NCBI RefSeq assembly: GCF_030269645.1
Contig: NZ_BSTR01000038.1
Span: 1-64,000, forward strand
DNA: 64,000 nucleotides
Source: Actinokineospora sp. NBRC 105648
GTDB taxonomy: Bacteria > Actinomycetota > Actinomycetes > Mycobacteriales > Pseudonocardiaceae
Direction of reading: 5' to 3'
Made by a program: the position numbers and the translations under genes. Every line of letters starts with the position of its first letter. Position 1 is the stretch's first letter. Below the pieces are notes generated by a model. That model had not been told where the DNA came from and searched no databases. It saw nothing but the letters and a program-made list of their open reading frames with translations. Of the stretch, positions 5,661 to 52,705 are shown piece after piece.

Positions 5661-5831
5661 GTGTTGTCTCCGTCCGCAGGGCGGGCGCGAAGCCTGCGTC
5701 GCCAGGTGCCGCGACGCGCCCGGTCGGAACGGCGGACCGCCCGGGGACACCCCGTCCGTGTGTGCGCGCCGGACGGGCGGTAGGCGATTTCGCCGTTCGC
5801 AGCAGGGAAAACGCGGCCGGTCGGACCGCCG

Positions 5832-5844
5832 CACCATTATGGTG
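5832..5844. promoter_or_regulatory. Palindrome CACCATTATGGTG upstream of the LysR gene
   Basis: A perfect 13-bp palindrome (6-bp arms, one central base) lies about 170 bp upstream of the LysR start, in the gap between the LysR and AKR genes. It also fits a T-N-A type LysR half-site arrangement. Possible autoregulatory site; sequence evidence only. Confidence 0.35.
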
Positions 5845-5888
5845 TGGGCCGCGGTGGCTGGCCTATCCCAATGTTGCATAGCGGATGT

Positions 5889-7697: not shown

Positions 7698-7821
7698 GAG
7701 TTCGCTCCCGTTGTCCCGGTGCCGCCGGGTTCGCCGGATCTGTGAAAAATGGCATCGGTGAATTCCCGGCCGACTCGACGCTAACACGGGATCCGGGCCC
7801 GGGTGGGCCGGCTGAAATCTC

Positions 7822-18587: not shown

Positions 18588-18969
18588 GACCGACACAGGG
18601 GCAATTGACACAGCGGCGATCGGCACCGGGCCAATCGACACAGGGGCGATCAACGCGGGGACAGTCGACACAGGGGCGGTCGACACGGTCACGACCAGCG
18701 TGTTCGACGCCGTGGTCGAGCTGATCGGCACCCTGGTCGGCGACGACCTGGAGGTCCTGGGCGTCCAGGTGCGCCACGACACCCCGTTCCACGAGGGGCT
18801 CGGTCTGGAGAGCATCGACCTGGTGACCCTGGCCGGGCTGCTCACCCGGCGGTTCGGCCCGCGGGTGAACCTCGCCGAGCACCTGGCCGAGCTCGACCTC
18901 GACGAGGTGATCGGGCTGACCGTCGGCGAGATCGCCGACTACGTCGCGCTGCGCGTGCGGGAGGGCTGA
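18574..18969 (+). CDS. Free-standing acyl carrier protein with repeat-rich N-terminus
   Basis: 131 residues. ATG 18574 overlaps the PKS end and follows GGAGAGGA; ATG 18580 in the same frame is also possible. Residues 1 to about 40 are short Thr/Asp/Gly/Ala repeats (IDTAAIGTGP, IDTGAINAG). The ACP fold follows, with the phosphopantetheine serine at Ser80 in GLGLESIDLVTLA. Such discrete ACPs can load, shuttle or release acyl chains. Here it could take the finished chain from the iterative PKS pair and pass it to the hydrolase or glycosyltransferase downstream. The gene lies in a tight operon, overlapping the PKS and 1 bp from the hydrolase. Confidence 0.88.
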   Translation: MAMTETDTGAIDTAAIGTGPIDTGAINAGTVDTGAVDTVTTSVFDAVVELIGTLVGDDLEVLGVQVRHDTPFHEGLGLESIDLVTLAGLLTRRFGPRVNLAEHLAELDLDEVIGLTVGEIADYVALRVREG

Positions 18970-18970
18970 G

Positions 18971-19753
18971 GTGCCCGAGTTGAAGGTCAACGGGTTGCGG
19001 GTGAACTACCAGCTGATGCCCGGCGCGGGCGCGCCGTCGGAGTCGGTGGTGTTCATCCACGGGATGGGCACCGACAGCCTGGCCAGCTTCTACCTGACCC
19101 TGGCCGCGCCGGTCGCCGCCGCGGGCATCGACGTGATCAGCTACGACCTGCGCGGGCACGGCAAGTCCGAGCGCCCGGTCAGCGGCTACGCGCTGCGCGA
19201 CTTCGTCGACGACCTCGACGAGCTGCTGCAGGTGCTCGCCCCCGACCGGCCGGTGCACCTGGTGGGCAACAGCTTCGGCGGCACCATCGCCTACGCCTTC
19301 GCCGCCGCGCACCCGGACCGGGTGCGCAGCGTGGTCTCGATCGAGTCGGAGCCGCCCACCGAGGTCTGGGCGGCGAAGATGGCGGGCATCCTGGCCGCGA
19401 CCGTCGAGCTGCTCGGGGTCGAGGAGAACTTCGAGTGGATCGAGGCCACCTTCGGCGCCCACCACCGGCGGCTGGCCCGGCTCGCGGCCGCCCGGATCAG
19501 CTCGACCACGATGGCCGAGGAGGTGCCGACCGGGCCGATGCTCTCGCCCGCCGAGGTGGCCGCGATCGGCTGCCCGGTGCTCTCGATCCTGGGCAGGCAC
19601 GGCTACCAGTCCGACGACCTGGACGCGCTGACCGCGCTGATGCCGCGCGGCGAGCTGTTCGTCTTCGACGGGCAGGGGCACTCGGTGCTGGTCGAGCAGC
19701 ACCGCGCCGTGCGCGGCCTGCTGGTCGACTGGGTGCGCAGGCACGCCGGGTGA
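18971..19753 (+). CDS. Alpha/beta-hydrolase (possible chain-releasing thioesterase)
   Basis: 260 residues; GTG 18971 lies right after the ACP stop. The alpha/beta-hydrolase fold is clear: VVFIHGMGTDS oxyanion loop, ISYDLRGHGKSERP, nucleophile elbow GNSFGG with Ser101, an acidic residue in the C-terminal half, and His237 in DGQGHSV. Small hydrolases of this kind release or edit chains on ACPs, or hydrolyse esters. Because it sits between a free ACP and a glycosyltransferase, release of the PKS product from the ACP is the most natural role. Neither upstream PKS protein has a thioesterase domain. The substrate remains inferred. Confidence 0.88.
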   Translation: MPELKVNGLRVNYQLMPGAGAPSESVVFIHGMGTDSLASFYLTLAAPVAAAGIDVISYDLRGHGKSERPVSGYALRDFVDDLDELLQVLAPDRPVHLVGNSFGGTIAYAFAAAHPDRVRSVVSIESEPPTEVWAAKMAGILAATVELLGVEENFEWIEATFGAHHRRLARLAAARISSTTMAEEVPTGPMLSPAEVAAIGCPVLSILGRHGYQSDDLDALTALMPRGELFVFDGQGHSVLVEQHRAVRGLLVDWVRRHAG

Positions 19754-20892
19754 GCAGGCTGCTGTTCGTCGTCCCACCGCTGGCCGGGCACGTCAACCCG
19801 CTGGTCGGGGTGGCCGCCGCGGCGGTGGCCCGCGGGCACGAGGTCGCCTGGGTGGGTCCGTGCCCGGTGGTGCGCGATCTGGTGGGGGAGCGGGTGTACC
19901 CGGCTGGGTCCACTGTGGAGCGTCGACCCGCGGGCCTGCGGGCCTACGCGGCGCTGCGCTTCCTGTGGACCGGGTTCCTGGTGCCGCTGGCCGACGCGAT
20001 GGTGCCCGGGGTGCTGGCCGCGGTCGAGGACTTCGGCCCGGACCTGCTCGTGGTCGACCAGCAGGCGTTCGCCGGAGCCCTGGTGGCGAGTCGGCTCGGG
20101 CTGCCGTGGGTGACCTCGGCGAGCACCTCGGCCGAGCTGTCCGACCCGCTGGGCGCGCTGCCGCGGATCGCGGACTGGGTGCGCGAGCAGCAGCGCGGCC
20201 TGCGGGCCCGCCACGGTGTCGAGGGTGAGGACGACCTGCGCTTCTCACCGCACTCGGTCGTGGTGTTCAGCACCGCCGAGCTGGCGGGTGAGCCCGCGGT
20301 CCGGGTGGCGGGCCCGCTGTTCGTCGGCCCGTCACTCGCCCCCCGGCGCCCCGTGCTGTTTCCCTGGGCCAGGCTGCGCCCGGGTGGGCGGATCGTGTTG
20401 GTGACGCTGGGGACCACGAACTCCGAGGCTGGTGGCCGGTTCCTGGCTGAGTGCGCCCTTGCGCTGGCTGAGGTGCCTGAGTTGCAGGGTGTGCTGGTTG
20501 ATCCGGGCGGATTCCTTGTCGGGGTGGCGGACACCGTTGTGGTGCCCGCGGTTCCGCAACTGGAGCTGATGACCCGCGCCGCTGCCGTCGTCTGCCATGG
20601 CGGGCACAACACGGTCTGCGAGGCGCTGGCGCACGGCGTGCCGTTGGTGATCGCGCCGATCCGTGACGATCAGCCTGTTCTTGCCGATCAGGTGGTTGGC
20701 GCGGGTGCTGGGGTGCGGCTTCGGTTCGACCATGTTCGGGCGGGCGATATCGCGCGGGCGGTGCGTACGGTGGTTGGTGATCCTGCCTATGCGTTGGCGG
20801 CTGGGCGGGTGCGGGGGTCGTTTGAGCGGGCGGGTGGGGCTGAGGCTGTGGTGTCGCATGTGGAGGATCTGCTGCGGGCCGTGCGCAGGTGA
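19750..20892 (+). CDS. GT1/MGT-family glycosyltransferase
   Basis: 380 residues from GTG 19750, overlapping the hydrolase stop (GTGA), which implies translational coupling. The N-terminus SRLLFVVPPLAGHVNPLVG is the acceptor-domain start of MGT enzymes. The C-terminal donor domain has VCHGGHNTVCEALAHGVPL and IRDDQP (about 280-307), the actinobacterial equivalent of the UDP-sugar-binding signature. It should transfer a sugar from a nucleotide donor to an OH of a natural product, most likely the lipid made by the preceding PKS genes. No deoxysugar biosynthesis genes are in the window, so a common UDP- or dTDP-sugar from primary metabolism is likely. Confidence 0.9.
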   Translation: MSRLLFVVPPLAGHVNPLVGVAAAAVARGHEVAWVGPCPVVRDLVGERVYPAGSTVERRPAGLRAYAALRFLWTGFLVPLADAMVPGVLAAVEDFGPDLLVVDQQAFAGALVASRLGLPWVTSASTSAELSDPLGALPRIADWVREQQRGLRARHGVEGEDDLRFSPHSVVVFSTAELAGEPAVRVAGPLFVGPSLAPRRPVLFPWARLRPGGRIVLVTLGTTNSEAGGRFLAECALALAEVPELQGVLVDPGGFLVGVADTVVVPAVPQLELMTRAAAVVCHGGHNTVCEALAHGVPLVIAPIRDDQPVLADQVVGAGAGVRLRFDHVRAGDIARAVRTVVGDPAYALAAGRVRGSFERAGGAEAVVSHVEDLLRAVRR

Positions 20893-21089: not shown

Positions 21090-21425
21090 GGCGGTACCAG
21101 CGGGGTCGGGAACCCGCTGAGGTTGCTGGACGTGGTGGCCTGTTGCGTACCAGCGGGGTTGAGACTCTGTTTCGTACCAGTTGGCTCGGGATGCCGCTGC
21201 GATTTGGTGGGGTGGGGATCCTGTTGCGCACCAGTGAAGTCGGGATTCTGTCGCGGTGCTGGCGAGGTCGGGGTCTTGTTGTGTAACTGTGGCGTGGGGA
21301 TCGTGTTGTGTGCTGGTGGGGTCGGGATGCTGTTGGCTACCAGCGGGCTCGGGATTCTGTCGCGGTGCCGGCGAGGTTGAGGTCCTGTTGCCTACCAGCG
21401 GGGTTTGGATTCTGGTGGGGCCGGC
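21090..21425. repeat. 27-bp degenerate tandem array
   Basis: About 12 units of roughly 27 bp with a consensus near TACCAGCGGGGTCGGGATTC followed by TGTTGC. Unit ends are marked by CTGTTGC or CTGTCGC. The array begins next to palindromic element copy 1 and runs into the 3' end of the SARP gene, so it encodes that protein's last 30 or so residues. Related units flank element copies 2 and 5. Confidence 0.75.
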
Positions 21426-23223
21426 CATCGTGCGAGCGTGGGGGTGGTGTCCAGACTGTCGTGTCGTAGCGGGAGGACCTCGCGCACAGCTCGCGGACCG
21501 CGCGCAGGTACAGCGGGTCGATTCGGTACCGCTCGGCCGTGAGGCCCCGGCCCGGTGGTGCTTGATCTGCCAGTCGTACCAGGGAAAGGCGTTCCAGCAG
21601 TGCTGTCGCGGTCGTGCGGGGTAGGGCCAGGGCGCGGGCCGTCCAGTCCGCCGTGACCGTGTCCGGTCGGGGGTCGCGGTGGGCCAGGCGCACCAGGGCT
21701 GCCCACTGTGGGGGTGTCAGCCCGGACGCGCTTCGGGCCACGCTCGCGGCCAGGTCCAGCGGACCCGCGGCCAGCAGGGGGTCCGCCGCCAGTCGTTGGG
21801 CCAGTCGTCCGAGTGACCAGTGTGGACGGTAGCGGGCCAGTTCGGCCAGCACCGCGGCGGCCAGGGGCAGGCCGGAGCAGCGTGACACCAGTGACCAGGC
21901 CGCGGCGGGCTCGCGTTCCACCCTGGCCGGGCCGACCCGAGTGGCGAACAGTGCCAGCAGGTCCTCGGCCGACATCCTGGGCAGCTCCACCGCCGGGATG
22001 CCTGCGGGCAGCCGCGCGGCGCAGCCCAGCAGCAGTGCGCTGTCCGGTGATCCCGGCATCAGCACCGACAGATCGACCCGGTCGTCGACGTTGTCCAGTA
22101 CCACCAGCAGTCGGGAGTCCGCGGTGTGCCTGCGGAACAGCCGCGCCCGCGCGGTCACCCCGTCCGGTACCGGGGCGTCCGGCCGCAGCGCGACCAGGAA
22201 ACCCGCCAGCACCTCGGCTGGGCCGCGGTCGGCGACGTCGGCCGACAGCCTGCCGTCGGGGTAGGAGGCGCGCACCTCGTCGGCGACGCGGGCGCAGAAC
22301 GTCGTGGTGCCCGCGCCTGGGGCGCCGACCACCGCTAGGACCGCGGGTCGGGTGCGCCGGGTCCGGGTGAGCTCGGCCCGCGCGGACTCGACCTGCTTGT
22401 CGCGGCCGACGAGCTCCCCGACCGGCGCGATCTGCTCCGGCCGCGCGCGCAGCGGTCGCACGGTCGCCACCGGGGCCGCGGGCTCGTAGCGCAGCGCTTG
22501 CTCGAAGGCCGACCGCAGGGCCTGGCCGGGTTCCAGCCCGGACTCCCTGGCCAGTCGGGCGCGCACGTCGTGGAACAGGTCGGTCGCCCGGGCGCGCTGC
22601 CCGACCAGGGCGAAGCCCAGCAGCAGCGAGGCGTAGAGCTGCTCGTGCCGGGGGTCCTCGCGCACGATCCGGTCGGCCAGCGCCAGCACCGCGTCCGGGC
22701 GCCCCAGGTCCAGCTGCACCCGCAGGTAGCGCTCCAGCACCCCCACCCGCAGCAGGTCCAGGCGGGCCTTCGCCAGTCGCAGCACCGGGCCCAGTGACAC
22801 GTCCGAGAGCACCTCGCCGCGGCACAGGCCGACCGCGGTGCCCAGGACCTGGGCCGCGGCGACCGGGTCGGCCGCGCGCAGGTGGGCCTCGGCCGTCTCG
22901 CGCAGCCGGGTCAGGCGCTCGGCGTCGAGGTAGTCCGGCGCGCGCAGCTCTAGCCGGTAGCCGACCTTGGGCGTGTGCACGCAGGCCTCGGCCGTGCCGA
23001 ACAGCTTGCGCAGCTGGGAGACGTAGGTCTGGGTGATCCGCGCGAGCTTCACCGACGGCGGGCCGGACCACAGCTCGTCGGTGATCGTCTCGTGCCGGAC
23101 CACCGCGCCGGGGTCGACCGCCAGCAGCGAGAGCAGCTGGCGCAGCTTGGGCTGCGACGGGGTGACCGGCACGCCGTCGACGGTGGCGCGCAGCGGCCCG
23201 ACGATCTCGATCCGAATGCTCAT
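21337..23223 (-). CDS. SARP/BTAD transcriptional regulator with degenerate NB-ARC domain
   Basis: 628 residues from ATG 23223. Residues 1-90 are the OmpR-like DNA-binding domain (LLSLLAVDPGAVVRHETITDELW; TYVSQLRKLFG). Residues of about 95-240 form the BTAD helical domain (LCRGEVLSDV; RARLARESGLEPGQALRSAFEQ). A STAND/NB-ARC-type ATPase domain follows. Its P-loop reads GAPGAGTTTF (300-309), with Thr306 where the Walker A lysine should be, while the Walker B segment LLVVLDNVDD is present. There are no TPRs. The last 30 residues (PNPAGRQQDLNLAG...) are encoded by the 27-bp array and resemble nothing else, so the original stop has probably been replaced. It is the final gene of the PKS1-exporter operon and a likely cluster-situated activator. 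Confidence 0.88.
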   Translation of the reverse strand: MSIRIEIVGPLRATVDGVPVTPSQPKLRQLLSLLAVDPGAVVRHETITDELWSGPPSVKLARITQTYVSQLRKLFGTAEACVHTPKVGYRLELRAPDYLDAERLTRLRETAEAHLRAADPVAAAQVLGTAVGLCRGEVLSDVSLGPVLRLAKARLDLLRVGVLERYLRVQLDLGRPDAVLALADRIVREDPRHEQLYASLLLGFALVGQRARATDLFHDVRARLARESGLEPGQALRSAFEQALRYEPAAPVATVRPLRARPEQIAPVGELVGRDKQVESARAELTRTRRTRPAVLAVVGAPGAGTTTFCARVADEVRASYPDGRLSADVADRGPAEVLAGFLVALRPDAPVPDGVTARARLFRRHTADSRLLVVLDNVDDRVDLSVLMPGSPDSALLLGCAARLPAGIPAVELPRMSAEDLLALFATRVGPARVEREPAAAWSLVSRCSGLPLAAAVLAELARYRPHWSLGRLAQRLAADPLLAAGPLDLAASVARSASGLTPPQWAALVRLAHRDPRPDTVTADWTARALALPRTTATALLERLSLVRLADQAPPGRGLTAERYRIDPLYLRAVRELCARSSRYDTTVWTPPPRSHDGRPHQNPNPAGRQQDLNLAGTATESRARW

Positions 23224-23235
23224 GGCGTCCTCGCC

Positions 23236-24045
23236 TCAGGTCGCCCGGCGGAAGTTCCGGACGGCGACGGCACCCGCGCCGAGCGCCGCGCCCAGCGCCA
23301 GCAGCAGCGCCCACGCGGGCGCGGCGCCCGGGGGTCTGCCCAGCGCGAGGGCGCGGGTGGCGTCGATCGCGTAGGTGATCGGGTTGACGGTGGCGACCGC
23401 GCGCATCCACCCGGGCATGCTGGCCAGCGGCATGTACGCGCTACTGGAGAACATCAGCGGGAACATGGCGACGAACGACACCGCCTGCATCAGCTCGACG
23501 TTGCGCCGCCAGGTCGCGATGGCCACGAAGACCCAGCTCAGGCCCCAGCCCACGACCGTGGCCAGCAGCACCGCCGCGGCCAGGCCGAGCACGCCGCCGC
23601 GGGGCTGGAAGCCCAGGAACAGCACGCCCGCCCCGGTGATCGCGGCCAGCTGCACGGTCAGCCGGGCGCTGTCGGCGAAGGTGCGGGCCAGCAGCACCGA
23701 CACCGGGCGGATCGGCAGGCTGCGCAACCGGTCCACCACCCCGGTGTAGGTCTCGGCCATCAGCCCGGCGCCCGCGCCCATCGCGGTGATCACGGCGATG
23801 TTCACCAGGGTGGCGGGCATCAGGTAGTTGACGTAGCCGGCGTAGGGCGCCACCCCGGGCAGCGCCCCGACACCGGCGAACACCTGGGTGAACAGCAGCA
23901 GCAGCACGACCGGCTGCAGCAGGCCGAAGAACACCAGCCGGTAGTCGCCGAAGGCCGCGCGCAGCGAGCGGGTGGTCAGCACCCACACCTGGGTGGGCAG
24001 CGAGCTCCCGGTCCACTCGGCGCGGTCGGGACCCGGCGCGCTCAC
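23236..24045 (-). CDS. ABC-2 type exporter permease (DrrB-like)
   Basis: 269 residues. GTG at 24045 overlaps the ATPase stop (GTGA coupling). About six transmembrane helices are visible, with the ABC-2 membrane signature GLMAETYTGVVDRLRSLPIRPV. The second half contains WRRNVELMQAVSFVAMFPLMFSSSAY-like sequence and the NPITYAIDATRAL motif typical of DrrB and other drug or lipid exporters. It should form a complex with the adjacent ATPase and move an amphipathic product out of the cell. In this operon the likely cargo is the PKS product or its sulfated form. This would place sulfated carrier on the same side of the membrane as the exported ASST-like enzyme at 30036. Confidence 0.9.
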   Translation of the reverse strand: MSAPGPDRAEWTGSSLPTQVWVLTTRSLRAAFGDYRLVFFGLLQPVVLLLLFTQVFAGVGALPGVAPYAGYVNYLMPATLVNIAVITAMGAGAGLMAETYTGVVDRLRSLPIRPVSVLLARTFADSARLTVQLAAITGAGVLFLGFQPRGGVLGLAAAVLLATVVGWGLSWVFVAIATWRRNVELMQAVSFVAMFPLMFSSSAYMPLASMPGWMRAVATVNPITYAIDATRALALGRPPGAAPAWALLLALGAALGAGAVAVRNFRRAT

Positions 24046-25119: not shown

Positions 25120-29862
<4,743 letters not shown>

Positions 29863-29885
29863 TGGCCATATCCGGCTGTTCTCCG

Positions 29886-29910
29886 ACGTTATAAGAATTG
29901 GCTATAACGT
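29886..29910. promoter_or_regulatory. Inverted repeat ACGTTATA-N9-TATAACGT in divergent promoter
   Basis: Perfect 8-bp AT-rich arms (29886-29893 and 29903-29910) lie in the 173-bp gap between the divergent PKS1 and sulfation operons. The symmetry and position suit a regulator controlling both directions. Three CCGGRN motifs at 10-11 bp spacing follow (29917, 29928, 29938) and could be a separate direct-repeat operator. Confidence 0.5.
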
Positions 29911-30035
29911 CCGCTCCCGGACCAGTTCCGGGAATTGCCGGATCTTGGCCTGCTCGACCGCTTGTGCCATGCTGGCTGGACTTCCGGATCTCGGCGGTGC
30001 CGATCCGGTATCCCCTCGGCTGTCTGGATGTCGAA

Positions 30036-31553
30036 ATGCCTTTAGCGCCGAAGCTTTTCCTCGACCGTACCCGAGCGTCGTTTCTCGGTGCCATTACCGG
30101 GGTCATTGTCGTGGTTTTCCCCGGTTTCTCGGTGCCGCCCGCGGCGCTGGCGGCGGTGCCGGTCGCCCCGCTCGCGCCGGTCGACGCCGCCGGGCGCTTC
30201 CTGTCCCGGCCCGACCTGTTCCCACCCGCGATCACCGTCGACCGGGCCGTCGCGCCCACCTCGCCGGGCACCATCCTGCTCGCGCCGAAGTCCGCCGCGG
30301 GCACCGCGCAGACCGGCCCGATGCTGGTCGACGACAGCGGCAGCCCGGTGTGGTTCCTGCCCCGCGGCGACAAGCTGCGGCTGGTGATGAACGCCCAGGC
30401 CCAGACCTACCAGGGCAAGCCGGTGCTGATCTGGTGGGAGGGCTCGTTCGTCCCGCTGGGCTGGGGGCAGGGCATGGTGACCATCGTCGACCAGAACTAC
30501 CGCACGGTCGCCCAGGTCGGCCAGGACCGCAGCGTCGACCTGCACGCCATCCGGATCACCCCGCAGAACACGCTGATCACGGTGGGCTACCGGACCACCA
30601 CCACGACCCCGGACGGCGTCTCGCTGCGGCCGATCGTGGAGAACGTCATCCGGGAGATCGACATCGCCTCCGGGCGGGTGCTGATGACCTGGTCGAGCCT
30701 GGACCACATCCCGCTCGCCGAGTCCTACCTGCGCTCCAACGAGCTGATGGGCTACGACTACCTGCACATCAACGCCGTCGACCTCGACGACGCCGGGAAC
30801 CTGGTGGTCAGCGGGCGCAACACGCACACCGTCTACACCCTCGAGCGCGGCACCGGCCGGGTGCTGTCCCGGTTGGGCGGCAAGCACTCCGACTACGCGC
30901 TCCCCCCGGAAGCGGTGTTCGCCTGGCAGCACAACGTCCGCGCGGTGCCCGGCGGTGACATCAGCATGTTCGACAACGAGGCCGCCGCCTCCTTCCCGCC
31001 CACCACGCCGACCCGCCCGTCCTCCCGCGCGATCACGCTGCACCTGGACCCGGTCGCCCGCACGGCCACGCTGGCCCGCTCGCTGAGCACCCCGGACGGC
31101 TTGTCCACCGGCGCCCAGGGCAGCAACCAGACCCTGCCCGACGGGCACGCGCTGGTCAGCTGGGGCGACCGCGGCCGGTTCAGCGAGTTCGACCGGGACG
31201 GCGCGATGATCTACGACGCGCACTTCGCCAACCCCAGCACCGACACCTACGTGGCGAACCGGGTCGACTGGCACGCCACGCCCACCGAGCCCCCCGCCGT
31301 CGCCGCCCTGCGCGCGGCCGACGGCGGCGTCACCGCCTACGCCAGCTGGAACGGCGCGACCGAGGTCCGCCGCTGGCAGCTGCTCACCGGGTCCAACCGC
31401 AACCGCCTCACCGTGGCGGGCGAGGCGTCCCGCAGCGGGTTCGAGACGGTCGTCAGCGCCGCGCGGGGCGACGGTTTCGCCGCTGTGCGGGCGTTGTCGG
31501 CCGACGGCAAGGTGCTGGGCACCTCGCCGGTCGTCGAAGTGCGGTCGACGTGA
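30036..31553 (+). CDS. Exported arylsulfotransferase (ASST family)
   Basis: 505 residues. ATG 30036 is chosen because it directly precedes a hydrophobic export signal (SFLGAITGVIVVVFPGF); the Shine-Dalgarno sequence is weak. The body matches the Arylsulfotran_2-type beta-propeller: MLVDDSGSPVWFLPRGD, DLHAIRITPQNTLITVGY, DYLHINAVDLDDAGNLVVSGRNT and AWQHNVRAVPGGDISMFDNEA. Conserved histidines lie in the positions that carry catalysis in this family. ASST enzymes move sulfate from an aryl sulfate donor to a phenol or other acceptor without PAPS. It opens an operon with APS kinase-CysQ and a PAPS sulfotransferase, so its donor is probably made in the same pathway. The signal sequence suggests action outside the membrane. 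Confidence 0.87.
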   Translation: MPLAPKLFLDRTRASFLGAITGVIVVVFPGFSVPPAALAAVPVAPLAPVDAAGRFLSRPDLFPPAITVDRAVAPTSPGTILLAPKSAAGTAQTGPMLVDDSGSPVWFLPRGDKLRLVMNAQAQTYQGKPVLIWWEGSFVPLGWGQGMVTIVDQNYRTVAQVGQDRSVDLHAIRITPQNTLITVGYRTTTTTPDGVSLRPIVENVIREIDIASGRVLMTWSSLDHIPLAESYLRSNELMGYDYLHINAVDLDDAGNLVVSGRNTHTVYTLERGTGRVLSRLGGKHSDYALPPEAVFAWQHNVRAVPGGDISMFDNEAAASFPPTTPTRPSSRAITLHLDPVARTATLARSLSTPDGLSTGAQGSNQTLPDGHALVSWGDRGRFSEFDRDGAMIYDAHFANPSTDTYVANRVDWHATPTEPPAVAALRAADGGVTAYASWNGATEVRRWQLLTGSNRNRLTVAGEASRSGFETVVSAARGDGFAAVRALSADGKVLGTSPVVEVRST

Positions 31554-32833
31554 GCGCCCCGGGGACCGTCGTCTGGCTGACGGGTCTGTCCGGGGCCGGG
31601 AAGTCGACCATCGCCCGGCTGCTGGCCGCCGAGCTGGACCGCACCGGGGTGCCCACCGAGGTGCTCGACGGCGACGAGGTGCGCGCCGCGCTGTCCACCG
31701 AGCTGGGCTTCAGCAAGCGCGACCGCGACATCCAGGTCAACCGGGTCGGCTACCTCGCGCGCCTGCTCACCCGGCACGGCGTCACCGTCATCGTCGCGCT
31801 CATCTCGCCCTACCGGGAGGCCAGGGACACCGTCCGGGCCAGTCTTCCGTCCTTTGTGGAGGTACACGTCCGGGCGCCGCTCGACGAGCTGGTCCGCCGC
31901 GACACCAAGGGCCTCTACCGCAAGGCGCTGGCGGGGGAGATCTCCGGGTTCACCGGCGTCAGCGACCCGTACGAGACGCCGACCCGGCCCGAGGTGGTCG
32001 TCGACACCGACACCTGCACCGCGACCGAGGCCGTGGCCCGGATCCTCGCGGTGCTCCGGCGCTCGCCCGGCGACACCCGCGACCACGTGCTCGCGGGCAA
32101 CCTCGCGGCCACCGCGGGCAGGCGGCTGCTCGACCTGCGCGACCAGCTCGGCTTCACCGACCCGGAGGCGCTGCGCGCGGCGGGGGACAAGCTCTCGCAC
32201 CGGTTCCTGGCCGACCGGATCGCCGAGCACCGGCGCACCGACCGGCTGCGCTCCGAGGAGGCGCCCGGCGACGGCGCGGGCGACCGGCTCTGGATCGTCG
32301 ACCCGCTCGACGGCACCCGCGAGTTCGGCGAGCCGGACCGCACCGACTGGGCGGTGCACGTCGCGCTCTGGGAACGCGGCGCGCTCGCCGCGGGCGCGGT
32401 GTCGCTGCCCGCCCGGGACCTGGTGCTCACCACCGGGAGCGCCGTCGCCCGGCCGCGCGCGCCGGGCCGGTTCCGGATCGCGGTCAGCCGCAGCAGGCCG
32501 CCCGCGCTGGCCGGGGCGCTGGCCGAGCGGCTGGACGCGGACCTGGTCCCGATGGGCTCGGCCGGGGTCAAGATCGCCTCGGTGCTGCTCGGCGAGACCG
32601 ACCTCTACGTGCACGGCGGCGGGCAGTACGAGTGGGACTCCGCGGCGCCGGTCGCGGTGGCGCTGGCCGCCGGGCTGCACGCCTCGCGCCTGGACGGGTC
32701 CCCGCTGGTCTACGGCCGCCCGGACGCCTGGCTGCCCGACCTGGTGGTCTGCCGGACCGAGGACGCCGAGCGGGTGCTCGCCGCGATCCGCGCGTCCGCC
32801 ACCGAAACCGAACCGCAGGAGGAGCTCGCATGA
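31550..32833 (+). CDS. APS kinase (CysC) fused to PAP phosphatase (CysQ)
   Basis: 427 residues; GTG 31550 overlaps the ASST stop. Residues 1 to about 178 are adenylylsulfate kinase: P-loop [47 protein letters not shown] and [18 protein letters not shown]. Residues of about 180-427 belong to the inositol-phosphatase superfamily of CysQ type: a metal-binding EEA, the DPLDGTREF signature, and [14 protein letters not shown]. CysC phosphorylates APS to PAPS, and CysQ hydrolyses the PAP left by sulfotransferases. The fusion therefore supplies the donor and removes the inhibitor in one polypeptide. No ATP sulfurylase gene is nearby, so APS must come from central metabolism. ATGA overlap with the sulfotransferase links the two. 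Confidence 0.93.
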
Positions 32834-33468
32834 AGGTCATCGGCGCCGGGCTGGGCCGCACCGGCACCGCCTCGGTGAAGGCCGCCCTGGAGCGGCTGGG
32901 CCTGGGCCCGTGCTACCACATGTTCGAGGTCACCGAGCACCCCGGCCACGGCGAGCGCTGGCTCGCCGGGCTGGCTGGGGAACCGGTCGACTGGGCCGCG
33001 CTCTACGACGGGTTCCAGTCCACAATGGACTGGCCGGGCTGCGCGTTCTGGGCCGAGCTGGTGGAGCGCTACCCGGAAGCCAAGGTCGTGCTCACCGAGC
33101 GGGACCCGCAGAGCTGGTACGACAGCCTCGCCCGCACGCTGCTCCCCGTGTGGCGCATCGCCGCCGACCCCGAGCGGGCCGCCCGGGTACCCGGGTACGA
33201 GTGGTACGGGCAGCTGGTCACCGCCATCTCGGCGCGCTCGTTCGGCGGCCGCACCGACGACCGGGAGCACATGGTCGCGGCGTTCACCGCGCACAACGCC
33301 GCCGTCCGGGCGGGCGTGCCCGCCGACCGGCTGCTGGTCTACCAGGTGGGCCAGGGGTGGGCGCCGCTGTGCGAGTTCCTCGGCGCGCCGGTGCCCGACG
33401 AGCCCTTCCCGCACCTCAACGACACCGCGTCGTTCCAGTCCATGGTCGAGCGGCTGCTGACCGCCTGA
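32830..33468 (+). CDS. PAPS-dependent sulfotransferase (Sulfotransfer_4 type)
   Basis: 212 residues; ATG 32830 overlaps the preceding stop. The N-terminus [20 protein letters not shown] is the phosphosulfate-binding loop of this family. Next comes CYHMFEV, then [14 protein letters not shown], the 3'-phosphate-binding region. The protein is cytosolic and slightly shorter than typical members (about 220-260), but it is complete at both ends. It should move sulfate from PAPS to a hydroxyl of a small acceptor. Because an ASST-like enzyme is in the same operon, one reasonable model is that this protein makes the aryl sulfate which the ASST then uses. Confidence 0.9.
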
Positions 33469-33485
33469 GGTCGAAGGACCCCCTG

Positions 33486-36400
33486 ATGGAAGAGCTCCTC
33501 GCCGAGCTGCGGGTGCTGCGCGCCCGGGTGGCCGAGCTGACCGAGCCGATCGCGATCGTCGGCGTCGGCTGCCGGTTCGCCGGTGGTGTCGACTCGATCG
33601 ACGGGCTCTGGGACCTCGTGGCCGAGGGCCGCGAGGTGGTGTCCGCGCCACCGACCGACCGCGGCTGGGACCTGCGCGGGGTGACAGGCGGCGGCGGTTT
33701 CCTCGAGCACGCGCTGGACTTCGACGCCGAGCTGTTCGGCGTGAGCCCGCGCGCGGCGCTGGGCATGGACCCGCAGCAGCGGGTGCTGCTGGAGGTGTGC
33801 TGGTCGGCGTTCGAGGACGCCGGGATCACCCCGGGCGGCGCCGAGCCGGTCGGGGTGTTCGTCGGCGTGGCCCACCACGACCACGGCACCCGGCTGCGCG
33901 CGGTGCCGCCCGAGGCCGCCGGGCACCTGGGCCTGGGCAGCGCCACCAGCGTGGTCTCCGGCCGGGTCGCCTACACCTTCGGGCTCACCGGTCCGGCGCT
34001 GACGGTGGACACCGCCTGCTCGTCGTCGCTGGTGGCGCTGCACCTGGCCGTGCAGTCGCTGCGCCGCGGCGAGTCGGCGCTGGCGTTGGCCGCCGGGGTG
34101 ACGGTCCTGTCCACGCCCAGCACCTTCACCGAGTTCGCCCGCCAAGGGGCGCTGTCCGCCGACGGGCGGTGCCGGGCTTTCGCCGAGGGCGCCGACGGGT
34201 TCGGCCCGTCGGAGGGCGCGGGTGTGCTGGTGCTGGAGCGGCTCTCGCGGGCCCACCGCCTCGGGCACCGGGTGCTGGCGGTCGTGCGCGGCAGCGCGGT
34301 GAACTCCGACGGCGCGTCGAGCTGGCTCACCGCGCCTGACGCCGACGCCCAGGCCCGAGTGATCGCCGCCGCCTTGGCCGACGCCGGGCTGACACCGTCC
34401 GATGTGGACGCGGTGGAGGCGCACGGCACCGGGACGCCGCTGGGCGACCCGATCGAGGCGCGGGCGCTGGTGGCCGCGTACGGGGCCGGGCGGGACCGGC
34501 CGCTGTGGCTGGGGTCGGTGAAGTCCAACATCGGCCACACCCAGGCGGCGGCGGGGATGGCGGGCGTGATCAAGACCGTGGCCGCGCTCCGCCGGGGTGT
34601 GCTGCCCCGGACGCTGCACGTCGAGCACCCGTGCGCGGGTGTGGAGTGGGGGCCGGTCTCGCTGTTGCGCGAATCGGTGCCGTGGCCCGAGACCGGGCGT
34701 CCCCGTCGAGCGGGTGTGTCCGCGTTCGGGATCAGCGGGACCAACGCGCACGTGCTCTTGGAGCAGGCGCCTGAGTCTCCGTCGCGCACGACCGAACCGG
34801 GCGTTGGCCTGGTGGGGGCGACAGTGCCGCTGCTGTTGTCGGCCGCGTCGTCGTCGGCCTTGCGCGCCCAGGCGGCCCGGCTGGCCGATTCCCTGGCTGG
34901 CCGGTCGACCGCCGGCGTGGCGGTCACGTTGTCGGGCAGGCCGCTGCTCGGTCATCGCGCGGTGGTGCTCGCCGCCTCGGTGGAGTCCGCTGTGGACGGT
35001 CTGGGCGAGGTGGCCGCCGGGCTGGTGCCCGGTCCCGGCGATGTCGGCCGTGCGGGTTCCGGTGTGGTGCTGGTCTTCGGCGGCCAGGGCTCGGAGTGGG
35101 TGGGCATGGGGGTCGAGTTGCTCGACACCTGCCCGGCGTTCCGGGACCGGATGGCCGACTGCGCCGCCGAGTTGTCCCGTTGGGTCGACTGGGATGTGCG
35201 CGCGGTGCTCGCCGACCCCGTCGCCCTGCGCCGGGTGGAGGTTGTGCAGCCCGTCTTGTTCGCGGTCATGGTTTCCCTCGCTGCTGTCTGGGCGGCCGCG
35301 GGAGTGCGCGTCGACGCGGTCGCCGGGCAGTCGCAGGGGGAGGTGGCCGCCGCCTGCGTGGCGGGCGCACTGTCCCTTGTGGACGCCGTGCGGGTCGTGG
35401 TGGTCCGATCCCGGTTGGTGGCCGAGCTCGGTGGCGGTGCGATGGCCTGGGTGCAGGCGCCGTGGGAGTGGTTGCACGCGGCGGCACACGACGTCGCGGG
35501 CGTGAACGGCGCGCCGTGTGAACCGGATGGCTGCCCGAGCACCGGGGTGTGGTTGGCGGCGGTGAACGCGCCCGCGTCGATCGTGGTGTCCGGCACGCCC
35601 GAAGTCCTCGAAACCCTGCTGGCGCACTGTGAACTGAACGGCGTTCGCGCGGGCCGTACCCCGATCGGCTACGCCTCGCACAGCCCACACGTGGCCGTGG
35701 TCGAACCCGCCTTGCTGGCGGAACTCGACGGGATCACCCCGTGCGCCCCGACCATCCCGATGATCTCGACCGTAACCGGGACCGAGGTCGAGACCCTCGA
35801 CCCGGCCTACTGGTACCGCAACCTTCGTGCGCCGGTCCGGCTCGACCGCGCCATCGACGCGCTTCTTTTTCTGGGCCACAAAGCTTTCGTCGATTGCAGC
35901 CCGCATCCGATCGTCACCGCGGCGCTGAACCAGAACTTGCACGGCCACGGCGACCACACCGTGATCTCCACCATCCGCCGCGACGACGGCTCCCCGGCTC
36001 GGCTCCTGATGAACCTGGCCGCCGCGCACGTGCACGGCATCGGTGTCGACTGGCGGGCGCTGCTGGCTGATATCCCGGACACCCCGGAACCGGTGCCCGG
36101 CTACCCCTTCCAGCGCACCCGCTACTGGATTCCGGCCGAGCGCCACCTCCTCGGCGCGCTTCTATGTCCTCAGTGGATAGAGGTCGACCCTGTCCCGGCG
36201 GAGGTACGACTCGCCGACGAGGTCGTGGCGGGGGAGACCTTGACGGGGTCGGTTGTCCTCCCGGTCACCGACGAGGACGCGTTGAGCGCGCTCCGCCAGG
36301 TGTCCACACTGCTCGAACGGTGGCGCACCGACCCGGACTGGGCGGACGCCCGACCGGTGGTGGTCACCCGGGTCGGCACACCCGACCACCCCGCGACCGC

Positions 36401-37442
36401 CGCGGTGTGGGGGTATGTGCGCTCGGCCCAGCTCGCCCACCCGGGTCAGGTGGGGCTGATCCACCTGCCCACGGCGGAGCCACTGTCTATTGTGGCCACA
36501 GTAGCCGGCAGCGGTGATCAGTTGCTCGTCCGTGACGGCGCAGTGTTCGAGCCCAGGCTCCTGCCCGCAGGCGGCCACTGCCCGCCACCCGATCTCTCGG
36601 CCGGCACGGTCTTGATCGCGGGCGGATCCGACGACGATCGCGCGTTGTTCGCCCGCGCGATGGCCGACTTGGGTGCGCTCCACCTGCTCCTGCTCGGCAC
36701 CCCATTACCCGGTTTGGCGGAGGAACTGGTCGACACCGCGATCCGCTTCACCGATGACGACATCCCGCACGCGCTCGCCGAAGCGCTCCCCCTCGCCGGT
36801 GTCGTCTACGCGGGCGGGCGCCCGGATGAGGCGCGCGCCCTGCACGAACTCACCGCCGAACACGACCTGGCCGTGTTCGTTCTCTCCGGCTCGGCGACCG
36901 GACTGCTGGGCGGCAAGGGCGCTGTCCCCGCCGCCGCCCTCGACGCCCTCGCGCACCGCCGCGCCGCGCTCGGTCTCCACGCTCTGGCACTGGCTTGGGA
37001 CCCGGGCGAGGTGGACCACCCCGGCGTCACCCCACTGTCTACTGAGGACAAGCGTGCGTTGGTCGTGGCGGCGCTGAGCACCCAGGGGACCGTGTTCGTG
37101 CCGGTCGAGCTGGATCCTGACGCGTTGCGGATATGGCCAACGGTGCCGGTCCCGCTGCGCCACCTGGTGGTCCGCCAGACGCCGGTGGCTGTGTGCGCGG
37201 CCGAGCTGCCAGACCTCTTGGAGCTGGTGCGCGGGCACGTCGCCGCGGTGCTCGGCCACCGTGGCCCGGACGCTGTCGACGCCGCCGTTCCGTTGCGTGA
37301 GCTGGGTTTTGACTCGCTCGCCGCGGTCGAGCTGCGCAACCGGCTCAGTGCGGCCACCGGCCTCGTCTTGGCGCCCACCCTGGTCTTCGACCACCCCACA
37401 CCCGCGGCGGTGGCCGAGTGCCTCCGTACCGGACTCGCATAG
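33486..37442 (+). CDS. Type I PKS module KS-AT-(inactive KR)-ACP
   Basis: 1318 residues; ATG 33486 follows AAGGA. The N-terminus [18 protein letters not shown] is a short coiled coil like those that dock downstream PKS subunits. The KS (about 20-440) has Cys178 in DTACSSS. The AT (about 515-800) has GQSQGE with Ser616 and YASH (729-732), the motif of methylmalonyl-CoA-specific ATs. A KR-derived region (about 890-1190) has lost its NADPH motif ([14 protein letters not shown] instead of TGGTGxLG). It also lacks the Tyr and Asn ([20 protein letters not shown]), so the beta-keto group should stay. The ACP has Ser1277. There is no thioesterase. Its AT may also charge the AT-less PKS at 25120. Confidence 0.92.
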
Positions 37443-37451
37443 GAGAGACCA

Positions 37452-40400
37452 TTGCGTACAAGTAGGAGACGCGCGACGAGGGTGGCCGCCGCCACCGTCG
37501 TCCTCGGCACCGTGCTGAGCGGCGTCCAGCTCGCCCCGGCCCAGGCGGCGCCACCGGCGCCCGAGCCGGTCGTCGGCCGATCGGTCACGCTGCTCACCGG
37601 TGACCGCGTGGTGGTGGACGCGCTCGGGCACCGGTCGATCCGTCCCGGGCCATCGCGGGAGAGGACCGCCTTCTCGCACTACGAACGCGACGGCCACCAG
37701 TTCGTGGTCCCGGTCGACGCGCTGGCCGCGATCACCGACGGCAAGGTCGACGAGCGGCTCTTCGACATCACCACCCTGCTCGACTCCGGCTACGACGACG
37801 CGCACGGCGCGGGCCTGCCGCTGATCGTGACCTACGACCCAGGTCTGGCACCGGTCGCGCTCGCCGGGACGGTGACCACCGCGAACCTGGCTGCTGTCAA
37901 CGGTTCCGCGGTCACCGCCAGCCGAGACGGCTCGGCTTGGCGCGCGGTCGGCACGCCCGGCGTGCACCGGATCTGGCTCGACGGCGCCCGCAAGGCACAG
38001 CTGGACCGCAGCGCCGCCCAGATCGGCGCCCCCGCGGCCTGGCAGGCCGGGTACACCGGCGCGGGCGTCACCGTCGCCGTGCTCGACACCGGCGTCGACG
38101 AGACCCACCCGGACCTGGCCACCCGGGAGGTGGCCGAGCACAATTTCTCCGACGCCCCGGACACGGTCGACCGGGTCGGCCACGGCACCACGGTGGCCTC
38201 CATCCTCGCCGGGACCGGCGCCCGCTACCGCGGCATCGCCTCGGGCGCGCGGCTGCTGGACGGCAAGGTGTTCGACGACAACGGCCTGAGCCGGGACTCG
38301 TGGATCATCGCCGGGATGCAGTGGGCGGTCGAGCAGGACGCCAAGGTCGTCAACCTGAGCCTCGGCGCCGCGGACCTGCCCGGGGCCGACCCGCTGGAGG
38401 AGGCGGTCAACACGCTCTCGGCCCAGCACGGCACGCTGTTCGTGGTCGCCGCGGGCAACACCGGCCCGAACCCGGGCACCATCACCTCACCCGGCAGCGC
38501 CGAGGCCGCGCTCACCGTCGGCGCGGTGGACCGCGCCGACAAGATCGCCTCGTTCTCCGGCAGGGGCCCGCGCATCGGCGACGCCGGCGCCAAACCCGAC
38601 ATCACCGCGCCCGGCGTCGGCATCGTGGCCGCGCGCTCGTCGGCCTCACCCGGCGACGGCCTCTACGCGGCCGACACCGGTACTTCGATGGCCGCCCCGC
38701 ACGTGGCGGGCGCGGCGGCCCTGCTGGCCCAGCAGCACCCGGACTGGACCGGCGAGCAGCTCAAGGCCGTGCTGATGGCCAGCGCCAAACCCGGTGTGTC
38801 GCAGACGATCTACCAGGAGGGCCTCGGGCGCGTCGACCTCGCCACGGCCATCAAGCAGACGCTCGCGACCAGTCCGCCGTCGGTGCACCTGGGCGTGCAA
38901 CAGCTCCCCGACACCAGCGGCCGCACGCACGCCAAGACCGTGACCTACCGCAACACCGGCACCGAGCCGCAGACGTTGGACCTGTCGTCGATCATGTACG
39001 GCCCCGACGGCAAACTCTCCACGCTGGTCACCGTCACCCCGGCCCGACTCGTCGTCCCGGCGGGCGGCACCGCGACCGCGACCTACACCGCCGACGCCGC
39101 GACCGCGACGCTGCAGGGCATCTACGCGGGCGTGGTCATCGCACGCGGCCCGGGCCAGTTCGTCCGCACGCCGGTCGTGTTCCTCCGCTCGGAGCAGACC
39201 TTCGAGATCACCGTCCGCCAGCTCGGCCTGGACGGCCACCCGGCGATCGCCTCGCAGGCCGGGTTCACCTCGACGACCACCGGCAGGCAGTGGGGCGTGC
39301 CCGCGTCCGGCAGGCTCCGGCTGCCGAAGGGGGACTACGCGGTCAGCGCCCTGCTGACCGGTGACAACCTCAGCTGGCTCTACCAGCCCAAGCTCACCGT
39401 CACCGGCGACACGGAGGTGGTCCTGGACTACCGCCTGGCCAAGCCGATCGACATCAAACCCCCGGTCGACGCCCGCGGCTACTTCCTGGATGTCGCCGTC
39501 TCCTACGGCCTGGCGTCTGTCGGCTTCACCATCGCCGACGTCACCCGACTCGCCACCGCGGGCCTCGGCGACCCGGTGCCCGGCAGCGACTTCACGGCCC
39601 GGTTCCACACCCAGTGGCTCACCGACGACGCCACCTTCTACGGCCTCGCCTGGTTCGTCCACGGCGCCATGCCCACCGGTTTCACCAAGCGACCGAGCAA
39701 ACGCGAACTGGCCCACGTCCACGCGGACCTGCGCCCCACCCACCCCGCCCAACCGGCCCTGCGCGGCGAGTTCCCGTACCCGGTGGAGGGCAAGCTCCCG
39801 GACCCCTTCGTCGCCAACGACACCATCACCCTGCCCCGCGTGCGCGAGGAGTACTACACGACCGAGGACCAGGGCACGCTGTGGAACACCCAGTTGGTGC
39901 AGCTGCAGCCGGACGGCCAAACGGTCGAGAGCACCGTGCTGAGCCCGATGCGCCACTACCGCTCAGGCCGCACCTACGAGGAAACCTTCAACCACGGCGT
40001 TTACGGCCCGGTCTTCCCGGCCTTGCCCAAGGAACAATCCTGGGTCAGCCGAATCGGTGATTACGTGCACGCCTACATCCCACTGTTCGGCGACGGCAAC
40101 GGCAACGCGGGCACCTCGGCCATGGCCACCACCGCGACCACCCTGTACCTGGACGACAAGAAGATCGGCGAGTCCACCGCGCCACCCCCCGTCGACTTCG
40201 CGGTCCCCGCCCCAGAAGGCAACTACCGCCTCGTCGCCGACGCGACCCGAGCACCGGGCACGGCCGACGTCTCCACCAGGGTCACCGCGTCATGGAGCTT
40301 CCGCTCAGCACACACCGACACCCTGACACCGCTACCGCTCTCCACGATCCGCATCACCCCGAACCTGGACAAGGCCAACGCGACCCCGAAGGGCCGGTTC

Positions 40401-40640
40401 TTCGCCGTGCCGTTCTCGTTGCAGGCCCAGGGAAGCAGTGACCTACGGCCAGCGAAGACACTGTCGGTCGAGGTCTCCTACGACAGCGGGACAACCTGGC
40501 AGAAGGCCCCGGTATTCGGCGGCACCGCATTCCTGTGCCACCCCAACAAGGCGGGAACGGTCTCACTACGAGCCAAGGCGACTGACCGCACAGGCCAGGC
40601 GTTGGAGCTGACCGTCATCGACGCCTACAAGCTGGTCTGA
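37452..40640 (+). CDS. Secreted subtilisin-family (S8) serine peptidase
   Basis: 1062 residues. TTG 37452 follows AGGAG and lies 9 bp after the PKS stop, so it is co-transcribed with the sulfation/PKS operon. The signal peptide ends near AQAAP. A prodomain precedes the catalytic domain (about 200-480) with Asp212 in VLDTGVDETHPDL, His244 in GHGTTVASILAG and Ser412 in GTSMAAPHVAG. About 580 residues of beta-rich C-terminal sequence follow, with no recognised anchor. Large secreted S8 enzymes of this design are common in actinomycetes, but one at the end of a PKS/sulfation operon is unusual. It could process an extracellular partner, or simply be read through from the operon. Confidence 0.93.
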   Translation: MRTSRRRATRVAAATVVLGTVLSGVQLAPAQAAPPAPEPVVGRSVTLLTGDRVVVDALGHRSIRPGPSRERTAFSHYERDGHQFVVPVDALAAITDGKVDERLFDITTLLDSGYDDAHGAGLPLIVTYDPGLAPVALAGTVTTANLAAVNGSAVTASRDGSAWRAVGTPGVHRIWLDGARKAQLDRSAAQIGAPAAWQAGYTGAGVTVAVLDTGVDETHPDLATREVAEHNFSDAPDTVDRVGHGTTVASILAGTGARYRGIASGARLLDGKVFDDNGLSRDSWIIAGMQWAVEQDAKVVNLSLGAADLPGADPLEEAVNTLSAQHGTLFVVAAGNTGPNPGTITSPGSAEAALTVGAVDRADKIASFSGRGPRIGDAGAKPDITAPGVGIVAARSSASPGDGLYAADTGTSMAAPHVAGAAALLAQQHPDWTGEQLKAVLMASAKPGVSQTIYQEGLGRVDLATAIKQTLATSPPSVHLGVQQLPDTSGRTHAKTVTYRNTGTEPQTLDLSSIMYGPDGKLSTLVTVTPARLVVPAGGTATATYTADAATATLQGIYAGVVIARGPGQFVRTPVVFLRSEQTFEITVRQLGLDGHPAIASQAGFTSTTTGRQWGVPASGRLRLPKGDYAVSALLTGDNLSWLYQPKLTVTGDTEVVLDYRLAKPIDIKPPVDARGYFLDVAVSYGLASVGFTIADVTRLATAGLGDPVPGSDFTARFHTQWLTDDATFYGLAWFVHGAMPTGFTKRPSKRELAHVHADLRPTHPAQPALRGEFPYPVEGKLPDPFVANDTITLPRVREEYYTTEDQGTLWNTQLVQLQPDGQTVESTVLSPMRHYRSGRTYEETFNHGVYGPVFPALPKEQSWVSRIGDYVHAYIPLFGDGNGNAGTSAMATTATTLYLDDKKIGESTAPPPVDFAVPAPEGNYRLVADATRAPGTADVSTRVTASWSFRSAHTDTLTPLPLSTIRITPNLDKANATPKGRFFAVPFSLQAQGSSDLRPAKTLSVEVSYDSGTTWQKAPVFGGTAFLCHPNKAGTVSLRAKATDRTGQALELTVIDAYKLV

Positions 40641-52646: not shown

Positions 52647-52705
52647 GCGCACCCGCGTCTGCACCCCCTGGGACGCCGTTCAGAACGAGATCACCCTAGA
52701 CGCCC

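What the first reader, a model, noticed from the sequence alone, without database searches (positions are those of the whole stretch)
30036..37442. PKS-linked two-step sulfation operon (APS kinase-CysQ, PAPS sulfotransferase, exported ASST)
Seen: four overlapping or tightly spaced genes encode an exported ASST-type enzyme, a CysC-CysQ fusion, a PAPS sulfotransferase and a PKS module. Known: caprazamycin uses a PAPS sulfotransferase (Cpz8) to sulfate a type III PKS product (Cpz6), which the ASST Cpz4 then uses as donor. Inference: here modular PKSs supply a sulfate carrier or final acceptor. The DrrAB-like exporter encoded divergently may bring the sulfated carrier to an ASST that acts outside the membrane. 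The complete donor supply plus two different sulfotransferase chemistries in one operon suggests an undescribed sulfated metabolite.
Basis: partly seen in the sequence, partly recalled or inferred. Interest (0 to 1): 0.78.

Follow-up and report, generated by a model that had tools for sequence, protein, structure and literature searches.

The report
Sulfate-relay cassette in a glycolipid cluster
Some Actinokineospora bacteria carry a gene set that looks able to load sulfate onto a small polyketide inside the cell and pass it, outside the cell, to a glycolipid-type product; it resembles the caprazamycin antibiotic sulfate relay, but a pair of modular polyketide synthases stands where that system has a type III enzyme.

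Summary
In detail: ASST (30036-31553), CysC-CysQ in one ORF (31550-32833), PAPS sulfotransferase (32830-33468) and a PKS module (33486-37442), overlapping or within 17 nt; an S8 protease (37452-40640) follows. The whole block, LysR to S8 (4692-40640), is kept in order in 7 of 16 Actinokineospora genomes; the other nine have no match to the ASST (E<=1e-60). The ASST's nearest solved structure is Cpz4 itself (47% identity). The sulfotransferase's nearest is 9kf1 (59%), of the same deposition series. The fusion holds the only APS kinase in the window's genome, whose CysH is of APS-reductase type, so PAPS looks dedicated to this cluster. The rest is a PUFA-synthase-like lipid synthase, hydrolase, glycosyltransferase and DrrAB. 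In 11 of 11 relatives read (four other genera, 8 of the 11 from one), this lipid/sugar half stands without ASST, CysCQ, sulfotransferase, protease or PKS pair. So the PKS pair seems to travel with the sulfation genes and, I infer, makes the sulfate carrier; the glycolipid is the likely acceptor. PKS2 (methylmalonyl-type AT, dead KR) fits the last unit of the caprazamycin pyrone carrier, but PKS1 still looks reducing in 5 of 7 strains. Product untested. New variant of Cpz two-step sulfation.

The parts
4692..5879 (-). LysR-type regulator, left edge of conserved block
   Evidence: Pfam PF00126/PF03466; conserved 6 of 6 congeners
5889..6893 (-). aldo-keto reductase
   Evidence: PF00248; 6 of 6 congeners
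6897..7787 (-). short-chain dehydrogenase
   Evidence: PF00106; 6 of 6 congeners
7987..14508 (+). fused PfaD-PfaA-like lipid synthase: ER-KS-AT-ACP-KR
   Evidence: Pfam; TIGR02813 847 bits, below its cut-off 1010; ACP motif
14511..18587 (+). PfaBC-like lipid synthase: KS-AT-DH
   Evidence: Pfam on the containing frame; start 14511
18568..18969 (+). free-standing acyl carrier protein (start codon not settled)
   Evidence: PF00550 E 1.6e-6
18971..19753 (+). alpha/beta hydrolase, thioesterase-like
   Evidence: PF00561; PF00975 6e-8
19750..20892 (+). GT1-type glycosyltransferase
   Evidence: PF06722/PF00201; tblastn in 6 of 6 congeners, in two pieces about 450 nt apart in G244
21337..23223 (-). 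SARP/AfsR-type regulator
   Evidence: PF03704 BTAD, NB-ARC
23236..24045 (-). DrrB-like ABC-2 permease
   Evidence: PF01061
24042..25073 (-). DrrA-like ABC ATPase
   Evidence: PF00005; TIGR01188 308.8 bits, just under its cut-off 312.45
25120..29862 (-). PKS1: KS-DH-ER-KR-ACP, no acyltransferase
   Evidence: Pfam; KS runs into DH without AT in 7 of 7 orthologues
29885..29911 (.). palindrome GACGTTATA-N9-TATAACGTC in the divergent promoter, putative operator or back-to-back -10 boxes
   Evidence: none in 100 shuffles with up to 3 mismatches; perfect in 4 of 7 strains, core TATAAGAA..ATAAC in 7 of 7
30036..31553 (+). exported ASST-type sulfotransferase, Cpz4-like
   Evidence: PF14269; 46.6% to Cpz4; signal-peptide-like N-terminus in 7 of 7; model pLDDT 82
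31550..32833 (+). CysC-CysQ in one ORF: APS kinase plus PAP phosphatase
   Evidence: TIGR00455 197.9 bits over cut-off 138.7; PDB 5djf (PAP phosphatase) E 3e-61
32830..33468 (+). PAPS sulfotransferase, Sulfotransfer_4 family
   Evidence: PF17784; 58.6% to PDB 9kf1
33486..37442 (+). PKS2: KS-AT-(degenerate KR)-ACP, YASH-type AT
   Evidence: Pfam; YASH and missing KR Tyr in 7 of 7
37452..40640 (+). secreted-type S8 subtilase, last gene of the run
   Evidence: PF00082; 9 nt after PKS2; 6 of 6 congeners

Best explanation
A Cpz-type two-step sulfate relay added to a glycolipid cluster. (1) CysD/CysN encoded elsewhere give APS; the fused CysC-CysQ turns it into PAPS and removes the PAP left over. 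(2) The PKS1/PKS2 pair makes a small enolic or pyrone-like polyketide; the Sulfotransfer_4 enzyme sulfates it with PAPS inside the cell. (3) The sulfated carrier, or the product, or both, cross the membrane, probably through DrrAB. (4) Outside, the ASST takes the sulfate on a histidine and passes it to a hydroxyl, most likely on the sugar, of the glycolipid made by the PfaDA/PfaBC-like synthase, hydrolase and GT1 glycosyltransferase. Shown by sequence: the genes, their linkage, the homology to Cpz4, the sole APS kinase of this genome, and the lipid/sugar half standing alone in relatives. Inferred: steps 2 to 4, the carrier's structure, the acceptor, and the direction of transport.
For: ASST homologous to Cpz4: 208 of 446 aligned residues identical, fold E 1.3e-52 to 9kf6 'reaction intermediate ... 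Cpz4', on one side of a branch with it at 97/96 among 17 rows of an unrooted tree; H170, H224, H244, R261, H299 invariant in 16 homologues and in 9kf4. The fusion is the only APS kinase match in G000; G000's CysH has CC...CAPC beside ORFs that I read as sulfite reductase, CysD and CysN, so cysteine synthesis need not use PAPS. One Sulfotransfer_4 and one Arylsulfotran_2 match in the whole genome, both here. Block intact in 7 of 16 congeners, no ASST match in 9. In 11 of 11 non-genus relatives read, PfaDA-PfaBC-ACP-hydrolase-GT1 stand without ASST, CysCQ, ST4, S8 or a PKS1/PKS2 orthologue. PKS2: YASH AT and dead KR in 7 of 7; [quoted passage not shown] PKS1's KR has lost its Tyr in 2 of 7 strains.
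Against: PKS1 looks fully reducing (DH, ER, KR motifs intact) in 5 of 7 strains, this window included; a reduced first unit gives no 4-hydroxypyrone, so the carrier would have to be another enol, or the reductive domains are skipped. No type III PKS among the block's scanned proteins. 9kf1 is not named Cpz8 in any output, and the ST4 tree does not join it to the Actinokineospora clade. Only 11 of 71 non-genus genomes with a PfaBC-like match were read, and 8 of the 11 are one genus. Two other carriers (G201, G152) have further strong APS-kinase matches, so sole PAPS supply is not general. The glycolipid is inferred from gene content; the S8 protease has no place in the model.
Confidence: 0.47

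Rival explanations
1. The PKS pair builds or extends the acceptor: PKS1 and PKS2 elongate the acyl chain from the lipid synthase, and the product is sulfated once by ST4 and again by the ASST, whose donor comes from elsewhere or is the same product passing its sulfate on.
For: PKS1 retains a full reductive loop in 5 of 7 strains, as for lipid elongation; neither PKS has its own loading module or thioesterase, so a starter from the lipid synthase is plausible; PKS1 lies 46 nt from DrrA in the exporter run.
Against: 11 of 11 relatives read keep the lipid/sugar half without the PKS pair (8 of one genus); the PKS pair was seen only with the sulfation genes (7 of 7). An ASST needs an aryl- or enol-sulfate donor (recalled), and I see no other maker of one in the block.
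Confidence: 0.28
2. Activating sulfation: ST4 sulfates a hydroxyl that is then eliminated, as the title of a paper on SgdX2 suggests and as known for CurM-type chain release (recalled), and the ASST does something unrelated.
For: ST4's second-nearest solved relative is SgdX2, called an 'activating sulfotransferase' of sungeidine synthesis in a paper title (seen only in a reference list). In G641 an ST4 homologue lies 104 nt from a PKS with no ASST or CysC match in 40 kb.
Against: The PKS2 next to ST4 cannot make a beta-hydroxyl (KR dead in 7 of 7); it leaves the co-conserved Cpz4-like ASST and the PAPS supply without a job.
Confidence: 0.1
3. Direct double sulfation: ST4 sulfates one site inside, ASST moves sulfate from an unrelated environmental aryl sulfate to another; no relay.
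For: ASST homologues at 33-42% stand away from any ST4 or APS-kinase match (9 of 9 genomes read, some on stretches of only 9.5-20 kb; 2 of 2 plasmid loci read out of 5 found).
Against: This ASST is nearer to Cpz4 than to those and is co-conserved with ST4 and CysCQ in 7 of 7.
Confidence: 0.08

Closest known systems
Caprazamycin two-step sulfation (Cpz6/Cpz8/Cpz4; also LpmB of liposidomycin)
   Same: Cpz4-type ASST plus a PAPS sulfotransferase plus a polyketide synthase in one cluster; a sugar-bearing lipidic product
   Different: Modular type I PKS pair in place of the type III PKS Cpz6; fused CysC-CysQ; no nucleoside-antibiotic genes recognised. The 2013 paper itself was not held; its content comes from passages of PMC4924298, PMC6731281 and PMC4257720
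Sulfated adipostatin (adp) cluster of Streptomyces davaonensis, AdpST (PMC12135136, abstract and passages)
   Same: PKS product sulfated by a PAPS sulfotransferase with a dedicated PAPS cassette in the operon
   Different: Type III PKS, separate kinase and two adenylyltransferase genes, no ASST among its five genes; the end product is the sulfated resorcinol
aba/teg glycopeptide clusters (PMC11727664, passages)
   Same: ASST (Aba19, 39% to LpmB and Cpz4 in that paper) beside PAPS sulfotransferases
   Different: Glycopeptide product, Sulfotransfer_1 enzymes; no APS kinase mentioned in the passages read
Secondary lipid synthases with fused pfaDA and pfaBC genes (PMC13291983, passages), likened there to Renibacterium's, which PMC3098273 lists under Type M with Actinosynnema (passages)
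   Same: Fused PfaD-PfaA and PfaBC-like genes, also in Actinobacteria
   Different: No 'sulf' word in the main text of PMC13291983; here a GT1 and a sulfation cassette are attached

Membership tests
Caprazamycin-type two-step sulfation | ASST of the Cpz4 kind | tested here: met
   46.6% identity, tree branch 97/96, fold match
Caprazamycin-type two-step sulfation | PAPS sulfotransferase of the Cpz8 kind | tested here: inconclusive
   58.6% to 9kf1; 9kf1 not named Cpz8 in any output; tree unresolved
Caprazamycin-type two-step sulfation | type III PKS making the carrier | tested here: not met
   no such domain among the block's proteins scanned with Pfam; rest of genome not searched for it
Caprazamycin-type two-step sulfation | sulfate passes from PAPS to polyketide to product | not testable with these tools
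   needs enzymology
ASST (arylsulfate sulfotransferase) fold | ASST beta-propeller fold with conserved His/Arg set, exported | tested here: met
   model pLDDT 82.4; hits 9kf4/9kf6 and bacterial ASST 3ett/3ets/3elq (E 3e-11 to 3e-10); invariant residues; signal-like N-terminus. Which His is the nucleophile was not tested
APS kinase (CysC) | apsK equivalog score | tested here: met
   TIGR00455 197.9 over 138.7
CysQ PAP phosphatase | CysQ equivalog score | tested here: not met
   TIGR01331 74 bits under 228.8, but PDB 5djf, a PAP phosphatase, E 3e-61: works like a CysQ, not filed under that model
trans-AT PKS | AT-less modules | tested here: met
   PKS1, 7 of 7
trans-AT PKS | free-standing AT in the cluster | tested here: not met
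   AT domains found only inside PKS2, PfaDA and PfaBC; so not filed as trans-AT
PUFA synthase (PfaA) | TIGR02813 score | tested here: not met
   847 bits under 1010; PfaA-like, not PfaA

The most novel reading that the evidence does not exclude
A modular type I PKS pair with one AT makes a presulficidin-like 3-methyl-4-hydroxypyrone (or its enol equivalent) whose only job is to carry sulfate across the membrane, so that an exported Cpz4-like enzyme can sulfate the sugar of a PUFA-synthase-derived glycolipid outside the cell; the relay is a movable cassette dropped into an older glycolipid cluster, and its carrier-making enzyme can be of a quite different PKS class from that in caprazamycin.
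Probability: 0.32. Interest if true: 0.78.

Novelty: new variant of a known kind. Interest (0 to 1): 0.6.

Why it matters
In the papers I could read passages of, the two-step sulfate relay is described for caprazamycin-like nucleoside antibiotics with a type III PKS. A second product class using the same relay with a modular PKS would show that it is a portable way to put sulfate on a molecule after export, would give a rule for finding such clusters (Cpz4-like ASST + Sulfotransfer_4 + APS kinase + PKS), and would make the natural donor of an ASST predictable.

Tried and rejected
ASST model from 7 orthologues alone was poor (pLDDT 45); 14 rows gave 82. A residue-level match to E. coli AssT was not obtained. 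Relay in other taxa: ASST (E<=1e-60) in 10 of 394 and ST4 (E<=1e-30) in 55 of 394 class genomes share only the window's own genome (these searches scored only the first 3 or 7 candidates per genome, so weak copies can be missed). Fattiviracin/cycloviracin as product: a listing of five papers only, none opened. The one paper found for the 9KF entries was unrelated.

I first thought G641's PKS mirrored PKS1/PKS2; it is KSQ-type loading plus one full module, so I dropped that parallel.
Full report
Observation. Across a 173-nt divergent promoter lie PKS1 (25120-29862), DrrA, DrrB and a SARP regulator. The promoter holds a palindrome (29885-29911) not met in 100 shuffles, perfect in 4 of 7 strains with its core in 7 of 7.

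Where it is. Locus L046, Actinokineospora terrae DSM 44260, comes from a contig of the same length (50,960) as G211:C12, a genome of the window's genus, so I take the genus to be Actinokineospora. The ASST (E<=1e-60) occurs in 7 of 16 genomes of the genus. In the other six carriers, LysR, AKR, SDR, PfaDA, PfaBC, ACP, hydrolase, GT1, SARP, DrrB, DrrA, PKS1, ASST, CysCQ, ST4, PKS2 and S8 stand in the same order and orientation, with some irregular copies: GT1 in two pieces and PfaBC matched over 932 of 1358 residues in G244, PKS1 over 1030 of 1580 in G100. The AfsR-type gene downstream of the window's S8 was not matched there. The block is therefore about 36 kb, 4692-40640.

PAPS supply. The fusion is the only APS kinase match in the window's genome. 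CysH of that genome carries CC...CAPC, the signature I recall for APS reductases, and sits with ORFs that I read as sulfite reductase, CysD and CysN. Cysteine synthesis thus need not pass through PAPS, and PAPS looks made for this cluster alone. Four of the other six carriers have further APS-kinase matches (G201 and G152 strong, G244 and G211 marginal at E 7e-4 to 9e-4), so this exclusivity is a statement about the window's genome. The full-length single-ORF fusion was seen in 7 of 297 family genomes, all of this genus (five candidates scored per genome).

The two sulfotransferases. The ASST's best solved relatives are 9kf4 and 9kf6, which the structure search names as Cpz4 of caprazamycin synthesis and its reaction intermediate; identity 208 of 446. 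An unrooted tree of 17 rows separates Cpz4 and the seven Actinokineospora proteins from nine others at 97/96. Five residues, H170, H224, H244, R261 and H299, are invariant in 16 homologues and kept in 9kf4; that some form the sulfate-transfer site is recalled from the E. coli enzyme. The N-terminus reads as a cleavable signal without a lipobox in 7 of 7. ST4's best solved relative is 9kf1 (119 of 203), whose accession is of the same series; I take it to be Cpz8, but no output says so and the tree of 38 rows leaves its place open.

The PKS pair. PKS1 is KS-DH-ER-KR-ACP without an AT in 7 of 7. PKS2 is KS-AT-ACP with a KR remnant lacking its nucleotide motif and its Tyr in 7 of 7; its AT has the YASH motif, recalled as methylmalonyl type, in 7 of 7. 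One AT thus serves two modules, or another AT loads PKS1. [quoted passage not shown] PKS2 fits the last of those units. PKS1 does not fit the first unless its reduction is off: its KR has lost the Tyr in G201 and is partly deleted, with the ER, in G100, but looks intact in the other 5 of 7, this window included.

What the rest is. PfaDA (ER-KS-AT-ACP-KR) and PfaBC-like (KS-AT-DH) proteins resemble secondary lipid synthases with fused pfaDA and pfaBC genes (PMC13291983 and PMC3098273, passages), but fall below the PfaA cut-off. With hydrolase and GT1 they suggest a glycolipid. A match to the C-terminal part of PfaBC (E<=1e-30) occurs in 80 of 200 family genomes, 9 of them of the window's genus. 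I read 11 of the 71 others, eleven of the twelve best-scoring (four genera, 8 of the 11 from one; three on stretches of 27-33 kb, the rest 40 kb): 11 of 11 have PfaDA, PfaBC, ACP, hydrolase and GT1, 10 SDR, 9 AKR, 8 both DrrA and DrrB, 1 SARP. None has a tblastn match (E<=1e-8) to ASST, CysCQ, ST4 or S8, and PKS1/PKS2 match only the KS or KS-AT of PfaDA at 31-39%. So exporter and lipid/sugar genes look like the old part, and the PKS pair seems to have arrived with the sulfation genes.

Mechanism. The parsimonious reading is a relay: PAPS to PKS product by ST4, export, ASST to the glycolipid, probably to a sugar hydroxyl as Cpz4 does with an aminoribose (PMC6731281, passages). Confidence 0.47 for the whole; higher (about 0.7, inference) for 'Cpz-type two-enzyme sulfation', lower for the pyrone. 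Distant ASSTs (33-42%) in 9 of 9 genomes read, several on short stretches, and in 2 of the 5 plasmid records found stand without an ST4 or APS-kinase match or annotation, so an ASST domain alone does not imply such a relay.

Novelty. A new variant: known relay enzymes, a different PKS class, a fused CysC-CysQ, and a different product type. Among the 15 of 57 papers listed none concerned a sulfated Actinokineospora product by its title or abstract start; nothing wider is claimed.

Noticed in passing
window 37452-40640: S8 subtilase is the last gene of the sulfation run, 9 nt after PKS2, kept in 7 of 7 strains; no role in the model.
   Followed up: partly
L040:13175-17485 and L033:2403-7244: In G100 PKS1 has in-frame deletions in ER and KR, and in G201 the KR Tyr is Asp; if real, these strains make an unreduced unit.
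   Followed up: partly
window 25120-25170: PKS1 ends after a variable tail with a conserved SGWDYP motif in 7 of 7; possibly a docking motif for PKS2's N-terminal coil.
   Followed up: no
L189-L190 (G641): A Sulfotransfer_4 gene lies 104 nt upstream of a PKS (KSQ-type loading plus one reducing module) and near a SARP, without an ASST or APS-kinase match in 40 kb.
   Followed up: partly
L151 (Rubrobacter tropicus plasmid): An ASST gene (41%) overlaps a sulfatase gene and follows a second sulfatase-like gene, hinting at an ASST-sulfatase unit.
   Followed up: no
L205-L226: A conserved PfaDA-PfaBC-ACP-hydrolase-GT1 cluster (often with DrrAB, SDR, AKR) in four other genera of the family, product unknown to me.
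   Followed up: partly
G000:C22:17994-19352: The window's own genome has a second, distant PfaBC-like gene (36%).
   Followed up: no
window 51345-52664: ORF that reads like a caspase-type peptidase with a C-terminal tail; outside the conserved block, not scanned.
   Followed up: no
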